Assembly (NCBI GenBank): GCA_902766105.1
Contig: CACXCI010000058.1
Coordinates: 1-42,913 of the forward strand
DNA from: an uncultured bacterium
GTDB taxonomy: Bacteria; Cyanobacteriota; Vampirovibrionia; Gastranaerophilales; Gastranaerophilaceae
Length of the DNA stretch: 42,913 nucleotides
Direction: 5' to 3'
Made by a program: the position numbers and the translations under genes. The notes under the pieces were generated by a model. The model did no database searches and was not told the DNA's origin. It saw only the letters and a program-made list of their open reading frames with translations. Of the stretch, positions 8,620 through 16,185 are shown one piece after another; position 1 is the first letter of the stretch, and every line of letters starts with the position of its first letter.

Positions 8620-9945
8620 TCAGGCAATCTCACCATTTAAGTACCAGGTTTTGCATCCTGTAATTTTTACCTGAATAAATTCGCCGGTTATATCCTTATC
8701 ATAAGGAATATGAACAATCTTGTTATTACGGGTTCTGCCGGTAATAATATTTTTCCCCTTATGATTTTCAAAATTTTCCACCAAAACTTCCATTGTTCTG
8801 CCGACAAATTTCTTGTTTGATGCAAGACAACACTTGCGGTTTTGCTCATTAAGTCTTGCAAGACGTTCAAACTTTGTATCTTCATCAATAAATTTATCTA
8901 CCCATTTTGCTGCAACAGTTTTTTCTCTTGGAGAATACGCTGCGGTATTTGAATAATCAAGCCCTATTTCTTCCATAGCCGTTAAAGTTTCAACGAATTG
9001 TTCTTCTGTTTCTCCGGGGAAGCCTGCAATAAAATCACTTGTTATAGTAACATCAGGCACCATATCACGAATTTTCTGCGCAATCTTAAAGTACGTTTCT
9101 CTGTCATATCTTCGATTCATTTTTTTCAAAACTTCACTGCTGCCTGATTGCATTGGAATATGAAAATATTCACAAACCTTATCCAATTCAACAACAGTTT
9201 TGATTAGATCATCCGTAATATCTGTCGGATATGAGGTAACAAAACGAATTCTGAAATTACCATCTATTGAATTTACCTCTTTCAATAAATCTGCAAGGCG
9301 ATAATTTTTATCTGTGAAATCTTTACCGTAACTATCGACATTTTGACCCAACAGAGTAATTTCTTTGAAGCCTGAATTGAGGGCATCTTTAACCTCTTTT
9401 AAAATAGTTTCAGGTTGTCTTGAACGCTCTCTGCCTCGTGTATAAGGAACAATACAATATGTACAGAAATTGTTACACCCTTCTGTAATCGGTATCCACG
9501 CGTTTACTGATTTTACACGATTTATTTCAAATTTTACGGCTTTATCATCTTCTGTTACATTGGTTTCTTCACACTCGCATACCTTTTCACCATTATTTAT
9601 TGATTTTATAATTTCCGGCAGAGAATATATTTTATGAGTTCCCAAAACGAAATCAACATAATGCGCACGTTTAAAAATTTGCTCGGCTTTTTGCTGAGCA
9701 ACGCAACCGCAAAAACCTATTTTTAATTCAGGTTTTGATTTTTTCCACTTACCCCAAGTACCAATAAGGCTGTATGCTTTATCTTCACTAAGCTGCCTTA
9801 TTGAACAGGTATTAACCATTAACAAATCTGCCTCTTTTGGCTTGTCGGTTTCCTCGTAACCGAAATTAGAAAGCATACCAAACATCCGTTCAGTATCAGA
9901 TTTGTTCATTTGGCAACCCATTGTTTCTATATATACTTTTTTCAT
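8620..9945 (-). CDS. miaB: tRNA-2-methylthio-N6-dimethylallyladenosine synthase MiaB
   Basis: A 441-residue methylthiotransferase that adds a methylthio group to i6A37 of tRNAs. The N-terminal UPF0004 domain holds the auxiliary cluster cysteines C11 (ETMGCQMNKSD), C47 (NTCSIR) and C81 (GCVAQQ). The radical SAM cluster is C157-x3-C161-x2-C164 (GCNNFCTYCIVPYTRGRERS). A TRAM domain ends the protein (GRTMEVLVENF to QVKITGCKTWYL). Length and domain order match MiaB more than MtaB or RimO; YTRGRERSR supports this. It is divergent from the first UPF0489-like gene and convergent with pheA. Confidence 0.93.
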   Translation of the reverse strand: MKKVYIETMGCQMNKSDTERMFGMLSNFGYEETDKPKEADLLMVNTCSIRQLSEDKAYSLIGTWGKWKKSKPELKIGFCGCVAQQKAEQIFKRAHYVDFVLGTHKIYSLPEIIKSINNGEKVCECEETNVTEDDKAVKFEINRVKSVNAWIPITEGCNNFCTYCIVPYTRGRERSRQPETILKEVKDALNSGFKEITLLGQNVDSYGKDFTDKNYRLADLLKEVNSIDGNFRIRFVTSYPTDITDDLIKTVVELDKVCEYFHIPMQSGSSEVLKKMNRRYDRETYFKIAQKIRDMVPDVTITSDFIAGFPGETEEQFVETLTAMEEIGLDYSNTAAYSPREKTVAAKWVDKFIDEDTKFERLARLNEQNRKCCLASNKKFVGRTMEVLVENFENHKGKNIITGRTRNNKIVHIPYDKDITGEFIQVKITGCKTWYLNGEIA

Positions 9946-10054: not shown

Positions 10055-11065
10055 ATGCTAATTACCGGAAAAAATTTTACAATTTTAAGTCTGATTTTAT
10101 CGATAGTTTTTATTATTATCGGTTCTTCATTAATAAAAAATTATAAAGAAAACAAAAGCTTTAAAGAAATTATCAAAACAGCAACCAAAGAAACAAAATT
10201 AATTGATGCAAATTTTGATCACAATCAGGCTTTGGATTTCAGCGATTACATAAAATCACAAAATCTTAAATTACCCAAAATTATAATAAATTTTGATACC
10301 CACAGCGATTTATATATAAATAAACCAATCACAATACCGAAAGAAGAAGGTATTGCAAGCTGGATAAATGCTTACTTGGCAAAATATCCGACTGTTGAAG
10401 AGTTATATTGGGTTATGCCTGACAAAGAAGCAACCACTCAGGAATTGCAGGTTATTTTTGCTCAAAATGATATTAATGAACTTTTTGATGGGGTTGAATT
10501 TTATGGCAATTCTCTTTACTTTGAACTGCCGCAAGATTATTTTATAAAAAATCCGTTAAATAAAATTTCTTACTCTCAAGATTTTATTATTGATAAAAGA
10601 AATGGCAGACTAAATGAATATATAGAAAAAAATAAATATTCACAGCAGTTAACTAATCAATATACGAATTTTGGCAAAAGAATTAAAATAACAACCTGCA
10701 CCATAGACACTCTGCCAGATTTTAAAGGGAGTAAAGTTTTCTTGAGTATTGATGCCGATTACATAAGCAATTCCGGATTTGATACTCTCAAAAATTTCAA
10801 GCTTATACGTAACAAAAAAGAAATTATGCAAGAATTTTTCGAAATTTTTGAAACGATAAATTCAAAAAATATTCAGCCGGAATATATTTCCCTATCTCTT
10901 TCGCCTCAATACTTACCCAAACAATATCACAAATTTACTTATAAAATTTTCCAAAAAATAATCAAATTTTCAAACAAAAAAGATGCACTAAACACATATA
11001 CCAGAGGTTATAACATAACACCTTCCGGTAGAAATCCGGAGGAAAAAATTGATTATACAAAATAA
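10055..11065 (+). CDS. Membrane-anchored UPF0489/arginase-fold-like protein, copy 1
   Basis: A 336-residue protein with an N-terminal membrane anchor (about residues 8-27) and a soluble domain likely outside the membrane. Motifs in order: DHNQAL (55-60), NFDTHSD (79-85), YWVMPD (118-123), FLSIDADY (229-236) and SLSPQYLP (281-288). DxHxD followed by SxDxD is the two-metal ligand layout of the arginase/deacetylase fold, and the DHNxAL plus DTHSD pairing resembles the UPF0489 (C5orf22-like) family. Family membership is from memory of motifs and not a search. It is the first of three tandem paralogues; its 3' end overlaps copy 2 by 17 bases. Substrate unknown. Confidence 0.8.
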   Translation: MLITGKNFTILSLILSIVFIIIGSSLIKNYKENKSFKEIIKTATKETKLIDANFDHNQALDFSDYIKSQNLKLPKIIINFDTHSDLYINKPITIPKEEGIASWINAYLAKYPTVEELYWVMPDKEATTQELQVIFAQNDINELFDGVEFYGNSLYFELPQDYFIKNPLNKISYSQDFIIDKRNGRLNEYIEKNKYSQQLTNQYTNFGKRIKITTCTIDTLPDFKGSKVFLSIDADYISNSGFDTLKNFKLIRNKKEIMQEFFEIFETINSKNIQPEYISLSLSPQYLPKQYHKFTYKIFQKIIKFSNKKDALNTYTRGYNITPSGRNPEEKIDYTK

Positions 11066-12029
11066 AATTATACCGACAATATCAATTTTTATAACAAGTA
11101 TTTTGATAGGTCTTGCCCTATATTTTTCCTATACGGAAAAATCAGAACAAATAACAAATAATCAAATAGAAACTCTCCTCCAAGAAATTACAAAAGATAC
11201 GCAATTGATTGATGCAAACTCTGATCATAACCAGGCATTAGATGTCATGGAATATGCAAAAGAAAACAGTATTAAAATTCCTAAAACAATCGTGAATTTT
11301 GACACTCATAGCGATATATATTTGAATGATTATCAAACCTTCCCCGATTCAGGGGTTGAAGATTGGTTGAACGAATATATTGCACAAAATCCTGAGGTCG
11401 ACACCCTATACTGGGTTGTACCTGACGAAGAAGCAAATAACATTCTAATGCAAATTCTTATGGCTGTGAAAATTTTTGATATTCCAAAAGAATTTTCACC
11501 CCTTATGGGAAATTCTATTGCCAAAATGAATCCATTTCATTTTGTTTTTAATCCGCTTAATAAAAAAAGTTTTACCCAAAATTTCTTAATTGATCCGCAA
11601 ACAAAAACAATGAACGAATATATCAAAGGTCATAAGCTTAATGAAAAATTATTCAAGAATAACATAAAATACAAAAATGTCAGAATTATAACCTGCACCA
11701 AAGATACTTTACCGAATTTTAAAGGAGAACAAGTATTTTTAAGTCTTGATTCTGATTATATGAGTAATTCCGGCTTTGACACAGCATTAAATTTCAAATT
11801 TATAAAATCCAACCAAGAAATTTTTAATACCTTTTACTCTGTATTTAAAACGACCAAAGATAAAAAAATGAAACCCGTTATTATTTCAATGTCGCTATCT
11901 CCCCAATATCTGCCAAAATCAAAACACAGTTACGTTGAAAAAATACTACAACTTGCAATAAAATATTCAAAAAAACAAGATATTATAAAAAATTACAAAC
12001 ATCATTATGACCCTAAAAGGTACGAATAG
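11049..12029 (+). CDS. Membrane-anchored UPF0489/arginase-fold-like protein, copy 2
   Basis: A 326-residue paralogue of its neighbours. It starts with TTG: GGAGG (11038-11042) sits 6 bases upstream and no nearby ATG exists. The N-terminal segment IIPTISIFITSILIGLALYF (about 7-26) is a membrane anchor. The motifs DHNQAL, NFDTHSD, YWVVPDEEA, FLSLDSDYMSNSGFDT and SLSPQYLP are all kept; the second metal motif reads DSD instead of DAD, which keeps both aspartates. The 17-base overlap with copy 1 suggests translational coupling in one transcript. Confidence 0.8.
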   Translation: MIIQNKIIPTISIFITSILIGLALYFSYTEKSEQITNNQIETLLQEITKDTQLIDANSDHNQALDVMEYAKENSIKIPKTIVNFDTHSDIYLNDYQTFPDSGVEDWLNEYIAQNPEVDTLYWVVPDEEANNILMQILMAVKIFDIPKEFSPLMGNSIAKMNPFHFVFNPLNKKSFTQNFLIDPQTKTMNEYIKGHKLNEKLFKNNIKYKNVRIITCTKDTLPNFKGEQVFLSLDSDYMSNSGFDTALNFKFIKSNQEIFNTFYSVFKTTKDKKMKPVIISMSLSPQYLPKSKHSYVEKILQLAIKYSKKQDIIKNYKHHYDPKRYE

Positions 12030-12038
12030 GAAATCTAC

Positions 12039-13049
12039 ATGAATAAACAAAAAATAATTCTACCAACAATAATAACTCTTACAGCGATATTGATAATATC
12101 AGCAATTTTCTTTTCTCTAAAAAAAGAAAATACAAATATCATAGATCTTATAAGACTAACTACTCAAAACACAAAACTTATTGATGCAAATACAGACCAT
12201 AATCAAGCCCTTGATGTGGCAGAATACGCAGTAAAATCGGGAATAAGCATCCCTTCAATACTTATAAATTTTGATACTCATTCAGATACTTACGTAAATT
12301 ATCCGGTTATAAAATACGGCACCGCAGGTGTTGAAAACTGGATAAATGAATTTCTTGCAAAATATCCTCAGGTTAATGAATTATACTGGGTAATGCCTGA
12401 TGAGGAAGCTAAATACATTCCGCTTCAAATATTTTTTGCAGAGGATAACTATGATTTAATTAAAATAGGAACTGATTTATACGGCAATTCCCTAAAAAAG
12501 GATATTAAATTGTATAAATTTGTTTTCACTCCGCTTACACAAAAAAAATATACCCAAAATTTTGTTATAAATACTAATACCGGCACACTTAACGAATACG
12601 TAAAAGGGTTGGAAATAAATAAAAATATTTTTCCAAAAGACCGCCCATATAAAACCATAAAAGTAACGACTTGCACAAAAAACACCCTGCCCGATTTTAA
12701 AGGGAAAAAAGTTTTTTTAAGTATTGATGCCGATTATATAAGTAACTCCGGATTTGATACCTATGAAGGTTTTAAGATAAGAAAGACACCGAAAGGAATT
12801 GAGCAAGGCTTTACCGATATTTTTAAAACAATCAAAGAAAAAAATATAACGCCGGAAATCCTTTCAATGACACTTTCCCCTCAATACCTGCCAAAAGAAC
12901 ATCACACACAGGTTGAACATATTTTTGAGTTTATTATTCACACCTCCGGCAAACAGGATGAAATTAAAACATACAAAAGACAGTACGATGTACCAAATCG
13001 CCTTATAGATATATATGATAAATTTGAAGAACTTGGTCTTATGAAATAG
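12039..13049 (+). CDS. Membrane-anchored UPF0489/arginase-fold-like protein, copy 3
   Basis: A 336-residue paralogue with ATG start and AGGAAA 7 bases upstream, beginning 9 bases after copy 2. The N-terminal anchor is IILPTIITLTAILIISAIFF. Motifs DHNQAL, NFDTHSD, YWVMPDEEA, FLSIDADYISNSGFDT and TLSPQYLP are present. Compared with the others it has an extra C-terminal tail (NRLIDIYDKFEELGLMK). It ends one base before the stop of the convergent helicase gene. Presence of all presumed metal ligands in all three copies argues that each is functional. Confidence 0.8.
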   Translation: MNKQKIILPTIITLTAILIISAIFFSLKKENTNIIDLIRLTTQNTKLIDANTDHNQALDVAEYAVKSGISIPSILINFDTHSDTYVNYPVIKYGTAGVENWINEFLAKYPQVNELYWVMPDEEAKYIPLQIFFAEDNYDLIKIGTDLYGNSLKKDIKLYKFVFTPLTQKKYTQNFVINTNTGTLNEYVKGLEINKNIFPKDRPYKTIKVTTCTKNTLPDFKGKKVFLSIDADYISNSGFDTYEGFKIRKTPKGIEQGFTDIFKTIKEKNITPEILSMTLSPQYLPKEHHTQVEHIFEFIIHTSGKQDEIKTYKRQYDVPNRLIDIYDKFEELGLMK

Positions 13050-13050
13050 G

Positions 13051-16000
13051 TTATATATCCGTTGTCAAAATTCTATCTAAACAAGCTTTAGCACTATATT
13101 GCCACTCACGATAAGTAATACGTTTGACCTTATACCCGCAACGTTCTAATATTGCTTGTTTTTTCATATTTGACATGTGGTGGAGTTTTTTATTATCCTC
13201 AACCCCATCAACTTCAACAATAAACTTATCATCAACAACCAAATCAGCACTCAAACCGGCAATATCAACACCTGCCTGAACAACATGATCAAGTTTTCTT
13301 ATTTCTTCTGCTATTTCACGCTCTAATGAATTTTTATAAATATTTTCATCTATACCCTCATTTAGAATTGTTGCTTTTCTGTCTTTATATTGCTTCAGAT
13401 AAGAAACATAATGTCTAAAATGTCCGTCAGGCATAGTTTCCAAATCATGTGATACAAAATTTATACATTTGCTTCTTGCACGTGTAATCGCTACATTAAA
13501 CAAATTCGGTTTTTGCAAGAAGGTTATACTTTGCGGATATGAATTATTCGCAAATGCCCACGACATCAAAATTATATCTCTTTCATCACCTTGGAAAGTG
13601 TGAGCAGTACCAATTTCTATCTGGTGTTTTTTAATCATATAATCAGATAAAACTTTTGGAACAGAAATTTTCAATTGCTCAACCTGCGCTCTGAATGGGG
13701 AAATAATACCGATAGAAACCGGTTTGTCGGGATTTTTACGCTCATCTTCAATAATTATTTCATGTAATGTTTTAACAAGAGCCTCTATTTCCGGCAAATT
13801 ACGAGTTGCATCGGAATCAACTTTACCATCTGGAACCATTACAATATCTATTGCATCATTTTCAATCGTGTCTTTTTTCATAACTCTAATTCTGTCATTA
13901 TAAAATTCGTGGTTAGAGAAATTAATAATTGGCGGCAAACTTCTGAAATGTTCATCTAACATAACTGAATTCATAGAATAATAATCAGCCAAATCAAACA
14001 TAGAATTTGTCCTAAACCGCCACATTAATTGATATTTATCAGGAATACCGTATTGGCTCAGGAAGGATTGTTCTTTTGCCTTTTCTAAGAATGATAAGTG
14101 AGGTAATTGTTTGTCATCTCCAACGACTACCGTACGTTTTGCACGATACATTATAGGAAAACAGCTTGCAATATCACACTGCGAGGCTTCATCAATAACT
14201 GCAACATCAAACATACCCGGTTTCAACGGCAAAGAATCCGATACAGCATAAGTTGTTACACACCAGCAAGGAAAAGCATCCAACAATGGTCTGAAATCCT
14301 CTGCTTCCATAATACTGTCAGTCGTTTTCTTTTTACGGCTTACCAAAGCTTTTGCATGAACTTTTATTCTTCTGACCTTTTTAGCATCATGCAATAAAAC
14401 TTTCAAAGCTTCTCTTCTTGTACTTTTTAAAATATTTATTGCCAATGAGCCTTGTTTTTTCTTCATTTGACGAATTTGCTCAATCATGACATGAAGATTA
14501 CCAATTTTTTGAATATCGGCTTCTATTTTTCGCAAACTCCATTTTTGAGTAACAAAATCCAGCTCAACTTTTAATCTGTCTAAAGTTTCAGGTTCAACAT
14601 CAAAATGCTTTATATCAAGAATTTTCTTTAATTGTCTCAAACTGTTCATATTGGCAAGACCGGCAAAAAATCCTGATTTTTCCATATTATCGTTTAGCGT
14701 TTTTATAATATCGTTTACACTATCAATTTCAGACTTTTTCAAAGGTCTTTTTATATATTCCAAAGCACCGACAATTGCTGTTTGCTGTTTGATTTCATCT
14801 TTTAAATCATGCCAGTCTTTTTCAAGTTTTATAATTTTTTCACATTTAGCTTCTGTTTCACGTAAGATATCCAAATGTTGACGCATATCTTTCACATCCG
14901 CAAAAATAAAATCATCAATATCATCATCTAACCCAATTTTACCTGATGTCAAATCTGACAATTGCTCGCTTAATTGTCTTTGATAATTCATTCTGCCTGC
15001 TCTTAACGCCAAAAATGGAGCGCCTAAATTATTCAATCTGTCTGCTACAACATCGACAGCCTTATCCATACGAGAAGCAACAAGAACGGTCTTTCCGTTT
15101 GCAATTAAATGCGCAACAAGGTTAACAATGGTTTGAGATTTACCTGTTCCCGGAGGTCCTTGGACTGCAATTAATTTGCTGTTTTCCACATTTTTTATGA
15201 CTCTTTCCTGCGAATCACTTAATGCCAATGGAGTTATAGGATAAAATTCACCTTCCCCATCTTTTAGCGGAAAATTCTTCTCAACAGATTGAGTATATTC
15301 ATCATTTATAATACCTAGTGTGGTTTCTCTAAATACTCCGCTTGGTTTATCTGCGATTTGTAACAATTCGTGCAACACACCTGCTGTTACTGCCGGTCTT
15401 TTAGTTAATATAATTGCACTTTGATATGTTACACTGAGCTTTTTAATTTCTCCAACAGCAGCTTTTTGCTTTTGCTCTTGAATTTCATCATCTATAATTT
15501 CATCATAATTTTCACCGGTTATTTGTACATCTGACAAATCCGAAGAAATTTCATCTTTAGCAACATTATCCTCCTGCTCATCCATAGAGGAATCCTCTGC
15601 TATTTCAATATCAGGAATCAATGATTTTAATGTTGTCAGGAAAATATCCATTTTTTCTTTTGTAATCGGAAGGTCAGGCACAACATCCAATATCCCCTCC
15701 AAAAACATATCAACCTCATCATCATCATCACTTTTTTTCATTAAAGCAGCTAAAGCACCTGTATTTAAAGACAAGACATCATCTTGCAAAATACAATTGA
15801 TACTGACACCATTACGTTCAAGGCGACAAGGAACATATAAAAGCGGAGTCAAAAATTCATTACCTTTTCTGGATTTACCGCTTTTACCGACCAAAAACAT
15901 ATAACCGTATATCAAATACTTATCTCTTGCACTTGATACACCCTGAAGCATAAGTTCCGTCAAATTTGGATTTGAACCGTCAAGTTTCAGATAATCAAGT

Positions 16001-16185
16001 CCTTGGGTTAACAAAGTTTCCTGCTCTTTTAAGAAAATCCATTTGTTATCTTTATCACCCTTTAAATTACGAAAAGTTGAGCTTTTAACCTCTTCTCTTA
16101 CACAGTCGTGTAAATACTGACTTAATTTTTTTATAAAACTGTTATTAAATGCCGAATTTAATGCTTTAGTTGCTTCTTGTAACAT
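13051..16185 (-). CDS. Superfamily 1 (UPF1-like) helicase with C-terminal nuclease-like domain
   Basis: A 1044-residue protein. Helicase motifs: Walker A QGPPGTGKS (342-350), motif Ia VLVASRMDKAVD, motif II VIDEASQCD (663-671), motif III VVVGDDKQLPHL, EHFRSLPPI (745-753), SPFRAQVEQL, AHTFQGDERD (861-870), and VAITRARSK (898-906). An acidic linker precedes the helicase (about 150-245) and a long charged insertion lies between motifs Ia and II. The last about 90 residues (from 955) contain GLSADLVVDDKFIVEVDG, with D981, E991 and D993, and resemble the restriction-endonuclease-like domain (DUF559/MTES_1575 type) found at the end of such helicases. A role in DNA or RNA repair or in defence is possible; nothing beside it decides this. 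Confidence 0.88.
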   Translation of the reverse strand: MLQEATKALNSAFNNSFIKKLSQYLHDCVREEVKSSTFRNLKGDKDNKWIFLKEQETLLTQGLDYLKLDGSNPNLTELMLQGVSSARDKYLIYGYMFLVGKSGKSRKGNEFLTPLLYVPCRLERNGVSINCILQDDVLSLNTGALAALMKKSDDDDEVDMFLEGILDVVPDLPITKEKMDIFLTTLKSLIPDIEIAEDSSMDEQEDNVAKDEISSDLSDVQITGENYDEIIDDEIQEQKQKAAVGEIKKLSVTYQSAIILTKRPAVTAGVLHELLQIADKPSGVFRETTLGIINDEYTQSVEKNFPLKDGEGEFYPITPLALSDSQERVIKNVENSKLIAVQGPPGTGKSQTIVNLVAHLIANGKTVLVASRMDKAVDVVADRLNNLGAPFLALRAGRMNYQRQLSEQLSDLTSGKIGLDDDIDDFIFADVKDMRQHLDILRETEAKCEKIIKLEKDWHDLKDEIKQQTAIVGALEYIKRPLKKSEIDSVNDIIKTLNDNMEKSGFFAGLANMNSLRQLKKILDIKHFDVEPETLDRLKVELDFVTQKWSLRKIEADIQKIGNLHVMIEQIRQMKKKQGSLAINILKSTRREALKVLLHDAKKVRRIKVHAKALVSRKKKTTDSIMEAEDFRPLLDAFPCWCVTTYAVSDSLPLKPGMFDVAVIDEASQCDIASCFPIMYRAKRTVVVGDDKQLPHLSFLEKAKEQSFLSQYGIPDKYQLMWRFRTNSMFDLADYYSMNSVMLDEHFRSLPPIINFSNHEFYNDRIRVMKKDTIENDAIDIVMVPDGKVDSDATRNLPEIEALVKTLHEIIIEDERKNPDKPVSIGIISPFRAQVEQLKISVPKVLSDYMIKKHQIEIGTAHTFQGDERDIILMSWAFANNSYPQSITFLQKPNLFNVAITRARSKCINFVSHDLETMPDGHFRHYVSYLKQYKDRKATILNEGIDENIYKNSLEREIAEEIRKLDHVVQAGVDIAGLSADLVVDDKFIVEVDGVEDNKKLHHMSNMKKQAILERCGYKVKRITYREWQYSAKACLDRILTTDI

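What the first reader, a model, noticed from the sequence alone, without database searches (positions are those of the whole stretch)
10055..13049. Tandem triplication of membrane-anchored arginase-fold-like proteins
Three adjacent paralogues of about 330 residues each carry an N-terminal anchor and the strictly kept motifs DHNQAL, NFDTHSD, FLS-D-DY-SNSGFDT and LSPQYLP. DxHxD plus SxDxD fit the two-metal centre of the arginase/deacetylase fold and the UPF0489 type. UPF0489 proteins have no known function, and a surface or periplasmic triplet is unusual. The copies have diverged strongly elsewhere, so each may act on a different substrate, perhaps a cell-wall or amidated sugar or peptide. This is the most likely undescribed enzyme system in the window.
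Basis: partly seen in the sequence, partly recalled or inferred. Interest (0 to 1): 0.7.

Follow-up and report, generated by a model that had tools for sequence, protein, structure and literature searches.

The report
Membrane-anchored cousins of peptide arginases
Three neighbouring genes in a gut bacterium encode membrane-tethered relatives of enzymes that turn arginine into ornithine inside peptides; the fold and metal site look clear, but what they act on is unknown.

Summary
Three intact tandem + strand genes (10055-11065, 11049-12029, 12039-13049) encode 336, 326 and 336 aa paralogues, 45-49% identical, each with an N-terminal anchor and all six ligands of an arginase-type two-metal site. 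The predicted structure of copy 3 (pLDDT 88.8) matches OspR, the peptide arginase 8BRP, far above anything else: Z 17.8 over 215 residues, next agmatinase 9.2. An independent model of a soluble relative gives the same ranking. These proteins are a divergent sister branch: below Pfam's cut-off, without OspR's dimerisation domain, and without RiPP genes nearby. The anchored form was found only in one Gastranaerophilales genus, at one fixed site (miaB-helicase). It is usually single; of the genomes searched only this one has three, with copies 1 and 2 on long branches. Most likely it is an envelope-tethered, probably Mn-dependent hydrolase acting on arginine-like side chains of exported peptides. 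Fold and metal site are well supported; substrate and outward topology are inferred. New variant of a known kind.

The parts
10055..11065 (+). copy 1, 336 aa; anchor about 10079-10135, DHNQAL 10217-10234, NFDTHSD 10289-10309, FLSIDADYISNSGFDT 10739-10786, LSPQYLP 10898-10918
   Evidence: the only place in the whole genome that the UPF0489 Pfam model touches at E <= 10 (E 0.09, 12.8 bits, below the cut-off of 27)
11049..12029 (+). copy 2, 326 aa, TTG start behind GGAGG; anchor about 11067-11123, DHNQAL 11223-11240
12039..13049 (+). copy 3, 336 aa, the copy on the shortest branch; anchor about 12054-12110; predicted ligands H54 (12198-12200), D79, H81, D83 (12273-12287), D230, D232 (12726-12734); S280 (12876-12878) at the place of OspR Ser264
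   Evidence: AlphaFold2 model pLDDT 88.8; VIA Z 17.8 to OspR 8BRP; alignment with OspR; tree
8620..9945 (-). miaB-like tRNA methylthiotransferase gene, fixed left neighbour (named from its sequence by recall, not by a family search)
   Evidence: same family beside the gene in 19 of 19 genus loci
13051..16185 (-). superfamily 1 helicase with C-terminal MTES_1575/DUF559 nuclease-like domain, fixed right neighbour
   Evidence: Pfam; same family in 19 of 19 genus loci

Best explanation
The three proteins are membrane-tethered hydrolases of the ureohydrolase fold and form a divergent branch next to the UPF0489/peptide-arginase family. SHOWN by computation: the fold (predicted model), the kept metal ligands and the anchor helix. 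INFERRED: two metal ions, probably Mn, held by H54, D79, H81, D83, D230 and D232, activate a water that attacks the guanidinium carbon of an arginine-like side chain, releasing urea and leaving an ornithine-like amine. INFERRED: the catalytic domain faces outward, so the likely substrates are peptides or proteins being exported or held at the envelope. The three copies are an expansion of a gene that is single in most relatives.
For: Foldseek's top three PDB hits are all OspR (E 8e-8 to 7e-7). VIA Z is 17.8 (3.4 A, 215 residues, 19% identity) against 9.2 for the next entry. A separately aligned soluble relative gives OspR Z 15.6 against 8.3. L050 was identified as OspR by identity to 8BRP. A joint alignment with OspR and two relatives keeps H54, D79, H81, S82, D83, W117, D230, D232, Y233 and S280 in 13 of 13 rows; these include all six OspR Mn ligands and Ser264, which replaces arginase Glu277 (PMC10028609 section 8). 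Like OspR (Ile73), the family has a hydrophobic residue where arginase has its proton-shuttle His. Profile-profile E is 1.7e-7 global against 0.43 for the reversed profile; in local mode it is 2.1e-6 against 0.01 reversed and 0.057 or worse in 10 of 10 column shuffles. Ligand motifs are kept in 33 of 33 relatives tested. The anchor is present in 22 of 22 genus members and in 0 of 8 and 0 of 3 of the two soluble sister groups. The residue before the ligand His, the proposed guanidine-stabilising Glu11 in OspR, is acidic (Asp) in 20 of 22 anchored members.
Against: No member passes the PF12640 cut-off; the best seen is 21.8 bits against 27. Sequence profiles do not find each other in whole genomes, nor does ours find OspR in the PDB. 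Foldseek TM-scores are only 0.45-0.52 with high rmsd. OspR's dimerisation domain (residues 170-234), thought to make the peptide cleft, is absent here. The Glu11 position is Asn in 2 of 22 anchored members and in 8 of 8 of one sister group, and Tyr in 3 of 3 of the other, so a guanidine substrate is not assured across the whole family. No RiPP maturase or precursor was seen beside the gene in 19 of 19 loci, as far as the flanks were read. The gene is absent from 22 of 37 genus genomes, so it is not essential to the genus.
Confidence: 0.45

Rival explanations
1. An envelope ureohydrolase for a small molecule (free arginine, agmatine, guanidine, a formimino or other amidine) that feeds nitrogen or polyamine metabolism.
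For: After OspR the structural list is agmatinases, guanidinopropionase, arginases and similar. The peptide-cleft dimer domain of OspR is missing.
Against: The clear gap Z 17.8 against 9.2 favours the peptide arginase branch. The genome already has a PF00491 arginase-family gene elsewhere (G000:C56). OspR does not process free arginine (PMC10028609 section 8), and the family shares its Ser at the Glu277 position and its lack of the His shuttle.
Confidence: 0.22
2. A metal amidohydrolase of the same fold acting on a non-guanidino bond, such as an acylated amine (a deacetylase-like role).
For: The guanidine-stabilising acid proposed for OspR is not conserved across the wider family: Asn in 8 of 8 and Tyr in 3 of 3 of the sister groups.
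Against: No deacetylase appears among the 50 entries listed for copy 3; for the soluble relative HDAC8 scores only Z 4.7. Asp is kept in 20 of 22 anchored members.
Confidence: 0.12
3. The catalytic domain faces the cytoplasm and the anchor only recruits it to the membrane; the substrate is then a cytoplasmic or nascent protein.
For: The sister-group homologues tested are soluble (0 of 11 anchored). The N side is not more positive than the C side of the helix in 4 of 22.
Against: Net charge before the helix is positive in 22 of 22 and exceeds that after it in 18 of 22, as in ordinary N-in/C-out signal anchors.
Confidence: 0.2
4. A RiPP maturase proper, with its precursor and other maturases elsewhere in the genome.
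For: Closest solved relative OspR is a RiPP maturase. Three SPASM-domain genes exist in the genome.
Against: No such genes adjoin it in 19 of 19 loci; the neighbours are housekeeping genes in fixed order. SPASM genes are common, matching in 9 of 14 control genomes.
Confidence: 0.08

Closest known systems
Peptide arginases of UPF0489 / pfam12640 (OspR 8BRP; BipC; FlmR/OhkR)
   Same: Fold, order of the three ligand motifs, six metal ligands, Ser at the Glu277 position, no His proton shuttle (PMC10028609)
   Different: N-terminal anchor, no dimerisation domain, about 40 extra residues between the YWVMP and SIDADY motifs, Asp/Asn instead of Glu11, no RiPP cluster, below Pfam cut-off
Conventional ureohydrolases (agmatinase, arginase, formiminoglutamase; PF00491)
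   Same: Three-layer fold and two-metal site residues
   Different: GGDHS and SxDxDxxDP motifs absent; much weaker structural match (Z 9.2 or less)
C5orf22, the human UPF0489 protein (as cited in PMC10028609 section 4)
   Same: Same pfam12640 family as OspR according to the paper
   Different: Not compared here

Membership tests
UPF0489 / peptide arginase (pfam12640) | Score above Pfam's gathering cut-off (27 bits) | tested here: not met
   12.8 bits for copy 1 in a whole-genome search; best relative 21.8 bits; 9 of 28 members show a sub-threshold match
UPF0489 / peptide arginase (pfam12640) | Three-layer fold of OspR | tested here: met
   Z 17.8 and, for a soluble relative, 15.6, each about twice the next entry; on predicted models
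UPF0489 / peptide arginase (pfam12640) | Six metal ligands (His12, Asp39, His41, Asp43, Asp165, Asp167 of OspR) | tested here: met
   13 of 13 aligned rows; motifs in 33 of 33 relatives; geometry not measured
[quoted passage not shown]
   DHNQAL and LSIDADYISN instead
UPF0489 / peptide arginase (pfam12640) | DXHXD motif | tested here: met
   NFDTHSD in all three copies
UPF0489 / peptide arginase (pfam12640) | Dimerisation domain (OspR Ser170-Ser234) | tested here: not met
   gap of about 50 columns in 10 of 10 family rows; sequence alignment only
UPF0489 / peptide arginase (pfam12640) | Placed in a RiPP gene cluster (bacterial peptide arginases) | tested here: not met
   19 of 19 genus loci lie between miaB and a helicase among housekeeping genes
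UPF0489 / peptide arginase (pfam12640) | Hydrolysis of peptidyl arginine to ornithine and urea | not testable with these tools
   needs protein
Arginase family PF00491 | PF00491 cut-off and GGDHS / SxDxDxxDP motifs | tested here: not met
   whole-genome PF00491 search finds only a different gene; 4 of 28 members sub-threshold; motifs absent
Histone deacetylase-like | Closest fold match to deacetylases | tested here: inconclusive
   not among the listed entries for copy 3; Z 4.7 for the soluble relative

The most novel reading that the evidence does not exclude
A gut-bacterial genus carries a fixed-site, envelope-anchored enzyme that edits arginine to ornithine in exported proteins or peptides: peptide-arginase chemistry taken out of RiPP biosynthesis and put on the membrane, locally expanded to three copies.
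Probability: 0.25. Interest if true: 0.65.

Novelty: new variant of a known kind. Interest (0 to 1): 0.42.

Why it matters
Peptide arginases are a small, recently recognised enzyme family, described in the papers read here as RiPP maturases. A membrane-tethered sister branch outside RiPP clusters would mean that arginine-to-ornithine conversion, or a related hydrolysis, happens at the envelope of uncultured gut bacteria. It also gives a peptide-arginase-like scaffold lacking the dimerisation domain, which would test whether that domain is what gives peptide specificity.

Tried and rejected
Direct family searches of the three proteins: nothing above cut-off in Pfam or NCBIfam, nothing convincing in PHROGs, nothing in PADLOC; sub-threshold names such as EspA, DUF3447 and class B beta-lactamase differ between copies and were rejected as noise. 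Copy 2 had sub-threshold agmatinase matches (E 0.03 and 0.05), which in hindsight point the right way. phmmer of copy 3 against the PDB gave only tubulin at E 0.55. The family profile against the PDB gave formate oxidase at E 0.03 and not OspR; rejected as chance because it aligns a variable stretch. Whole-genome searches with the OspR-type profile in the own genome and with our profile in three OspR-type genomes found nothing; these count against a close relationship. Viral contigs: 55 pattern hits, 0 relatives. Viral predicted structures: no hit with E 0.001 or better. Cell-wall or sugar substrates: no evidence found in the neighbourhood.

Rows dropped before counts: L018 (G053; one ligand apparently replaced) and the weak matches in G149, G330 and G336 (E 8e-5 to 0.009) were left out of the ligand and anchor counts. 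G336's match lies in a gene that reads as an electron-transfer flavoprotein (recalled from its sequence) and is probably chance. The soluble group was counted from the eight loci, not from all 12 genomes. L080 was left out of A3 because its frame was first set wrongly and used later in A5. Promoter scan: 27 found against 19.6 expected, no terminators; not informative.

'Not in print' rests on searches in an open-licence PMC library only. Papers seen: PMC10028609 (outline with abstract, passages, section 4, section 8 part 1), PMC12707348 (passages), PMC12703449 (passages, section 4); all others as search listings only.

Full report
Observation. Three + strand frames of 336, 326 and 336 aa lie head to tail at 10055-11065, 11049-12029 and 12039-13049; copy 2 begins at a TTG behind GGAGG and overlaps copy 1 by 17 bases. 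All have a strongly hydrophobic stretch near the N terminus, a helix of residues 3-28 in the model of copy 3.

Distribution. The family profile finds only these three copies in the own genome and finds the family in 15 of 37 same-genus genomes, own included: 13 single, one double, this one triple. In a 383-genome sample of the order, 36 had a match at E 0.01 or better: 17 of the same genus, 15 of two other genera of the same family (soluble; 24-29% identical to copy 3 where measured), and four weaker ones of which at least one looks like chance. A pattern-based scan of a collection of one genome for each of 84,980 species returned 26 loci. Most are titled Gastranaerophilales, Melainabacteria or plain 'bacterium'. 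The scan needs short conserved peptides, so more distant relatives elsewhere would be missed.

Place. In 19 of 19 genus loci the gene lies between miaB and a superfamily 1 helicase; two small extra frames intervene in one (L069). Of 17 same-genus genomes without the gene that I examined, three (G003, G006, G030) have the helicase and miaB directly adjacent with about 110-130 bases between; in the other 14 no miaB was found in the 1.5 kb (less at contig ends) read behind the helicase. The gene is thus an optional occupant of a fixed site, and no precursor peptide or maturase was seen beside it.

Selection and history. Five comparable pairs of relatives give dN/dS of about 0.11-0.19; the other four of nine pairs tested are saturated or nearly so (dS 1.7 or more), including all pairs of window copies. 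In the tree copy 3 groups with the gene of a roe-deer gut genome (support 100/99), while copies 1 and 2 have end branches of 1.09 and 1.02 against a median of 0.35. The place of copies 1 and 2 is not resolved, so whether the triplication arose in one lineage or was older and lost elsewhere stays open.

Fold. AlphaFold2 on 28 sequences gave pLDDT 88.8 and pTM 0.85. Foldseek ranks three OspR chains first (E 8e-8 to 7e-7) with modest TM-scores of 0.45-0.52. VIA-align gives OspR Z 17.8, 3.4 A over 215 residues; the next entry is an agmatinase at 9.2. A separate model of a soluble relative from 8 sequences (pLDDT 82.3) gives OspR Z 15.6 and the next entry 8.3. The predicted ligands follow strands 47-51, 74-78 and 224-230, as in the arginase fold; distances were not measured.

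Sequence link to OspR. L050, found by the Pfam model, is OspR itself, identical to 8BRP over residues 2-308. Aligned with it and two relatives, ten positions are invariant in 13 of 13 rows, among them all six ligands and the Ser that replaces arginase Glu277 (roles from PMC10028609 section 8). Profile-profile comparison gives E 2.1e-6 local and 1.7e-7 global, against 0.01 and 0.43 for the reversed profile and 0.057 or worse for 10 of 10 shuffles (local). The link is remote: no member tested passes the Pfam cut-off and plain profile searches fail.

What differs from known peptide arginases. OspR's dimerisation domain is absent, and the family has about 40 extra residues between YWVMP and SIDADY. 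The proposed guanidine-stabilising Glu11 is Asp in 20 of 22 anchored members, Asn in the other 2, Asn in 8 of 8 and Tyr in 3 of 3 soluble ones. The anchor is in 22 of 22 genus members and in none of 11 soluble ones; charge is positive before the helix in 22 of 22 and larger than behind it in 18 of 22, which favours but does not prove an outward domain.

Mechanism and verdict. I am about 90% sure of the ureohydrolase-type metal fold (inference from the above), and about 45% sure of the fuller statement that it acts on arginine-like side chains of peptides at the envelope. I rate it a new variant of a known kind: not found in the searched literature, interesting because it takes peptide-arginase-like chemistry out of the RiPP setting, but with the substrate unknown.

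Noticed in passing
window 13051-16185 (-): Superfamily 1 helicase with a C-terminal MTES_1575/DUF559 nuclease-like domain; partial matches to antiphage helicases ProA and Hhe well below their cut-offs. Present in all 20 same-genus genomes searched.
   Followed up: partly
L111 11764-12342 (same gene as L018): Distant homologue in another family of the order reads LDICGDYF where the ligand motif is expected and stops soon after: one bridging ligand seems lost, possibly a decayed gene.
   Followed up: no
L075 771-2388, and the same pair in other soluble-group loci: The soluble sister homologues sit beside a conserved pair of related genes, in 7 of 8 loci; the pair of L075 has no Pfam or NCBIfam match above cut-off.
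   Followed up: partly
L108 8613-9662, L109 5043-6089, L110 8343-9419: A second soluble sister group carries about 80 extra C-terminal residues and Tyr before the ligand His.
   Followed up: no
   Followed up: partly
BFVD C7BUW9 (Synechococcus phage S-RSM4), not in the window: Uncharacterised phage protein is a weak structural match to copy 3 (Foldseek E 0.009, probability 1.00); perhaps a viral UPF0489-like protein.
   Followed up: no
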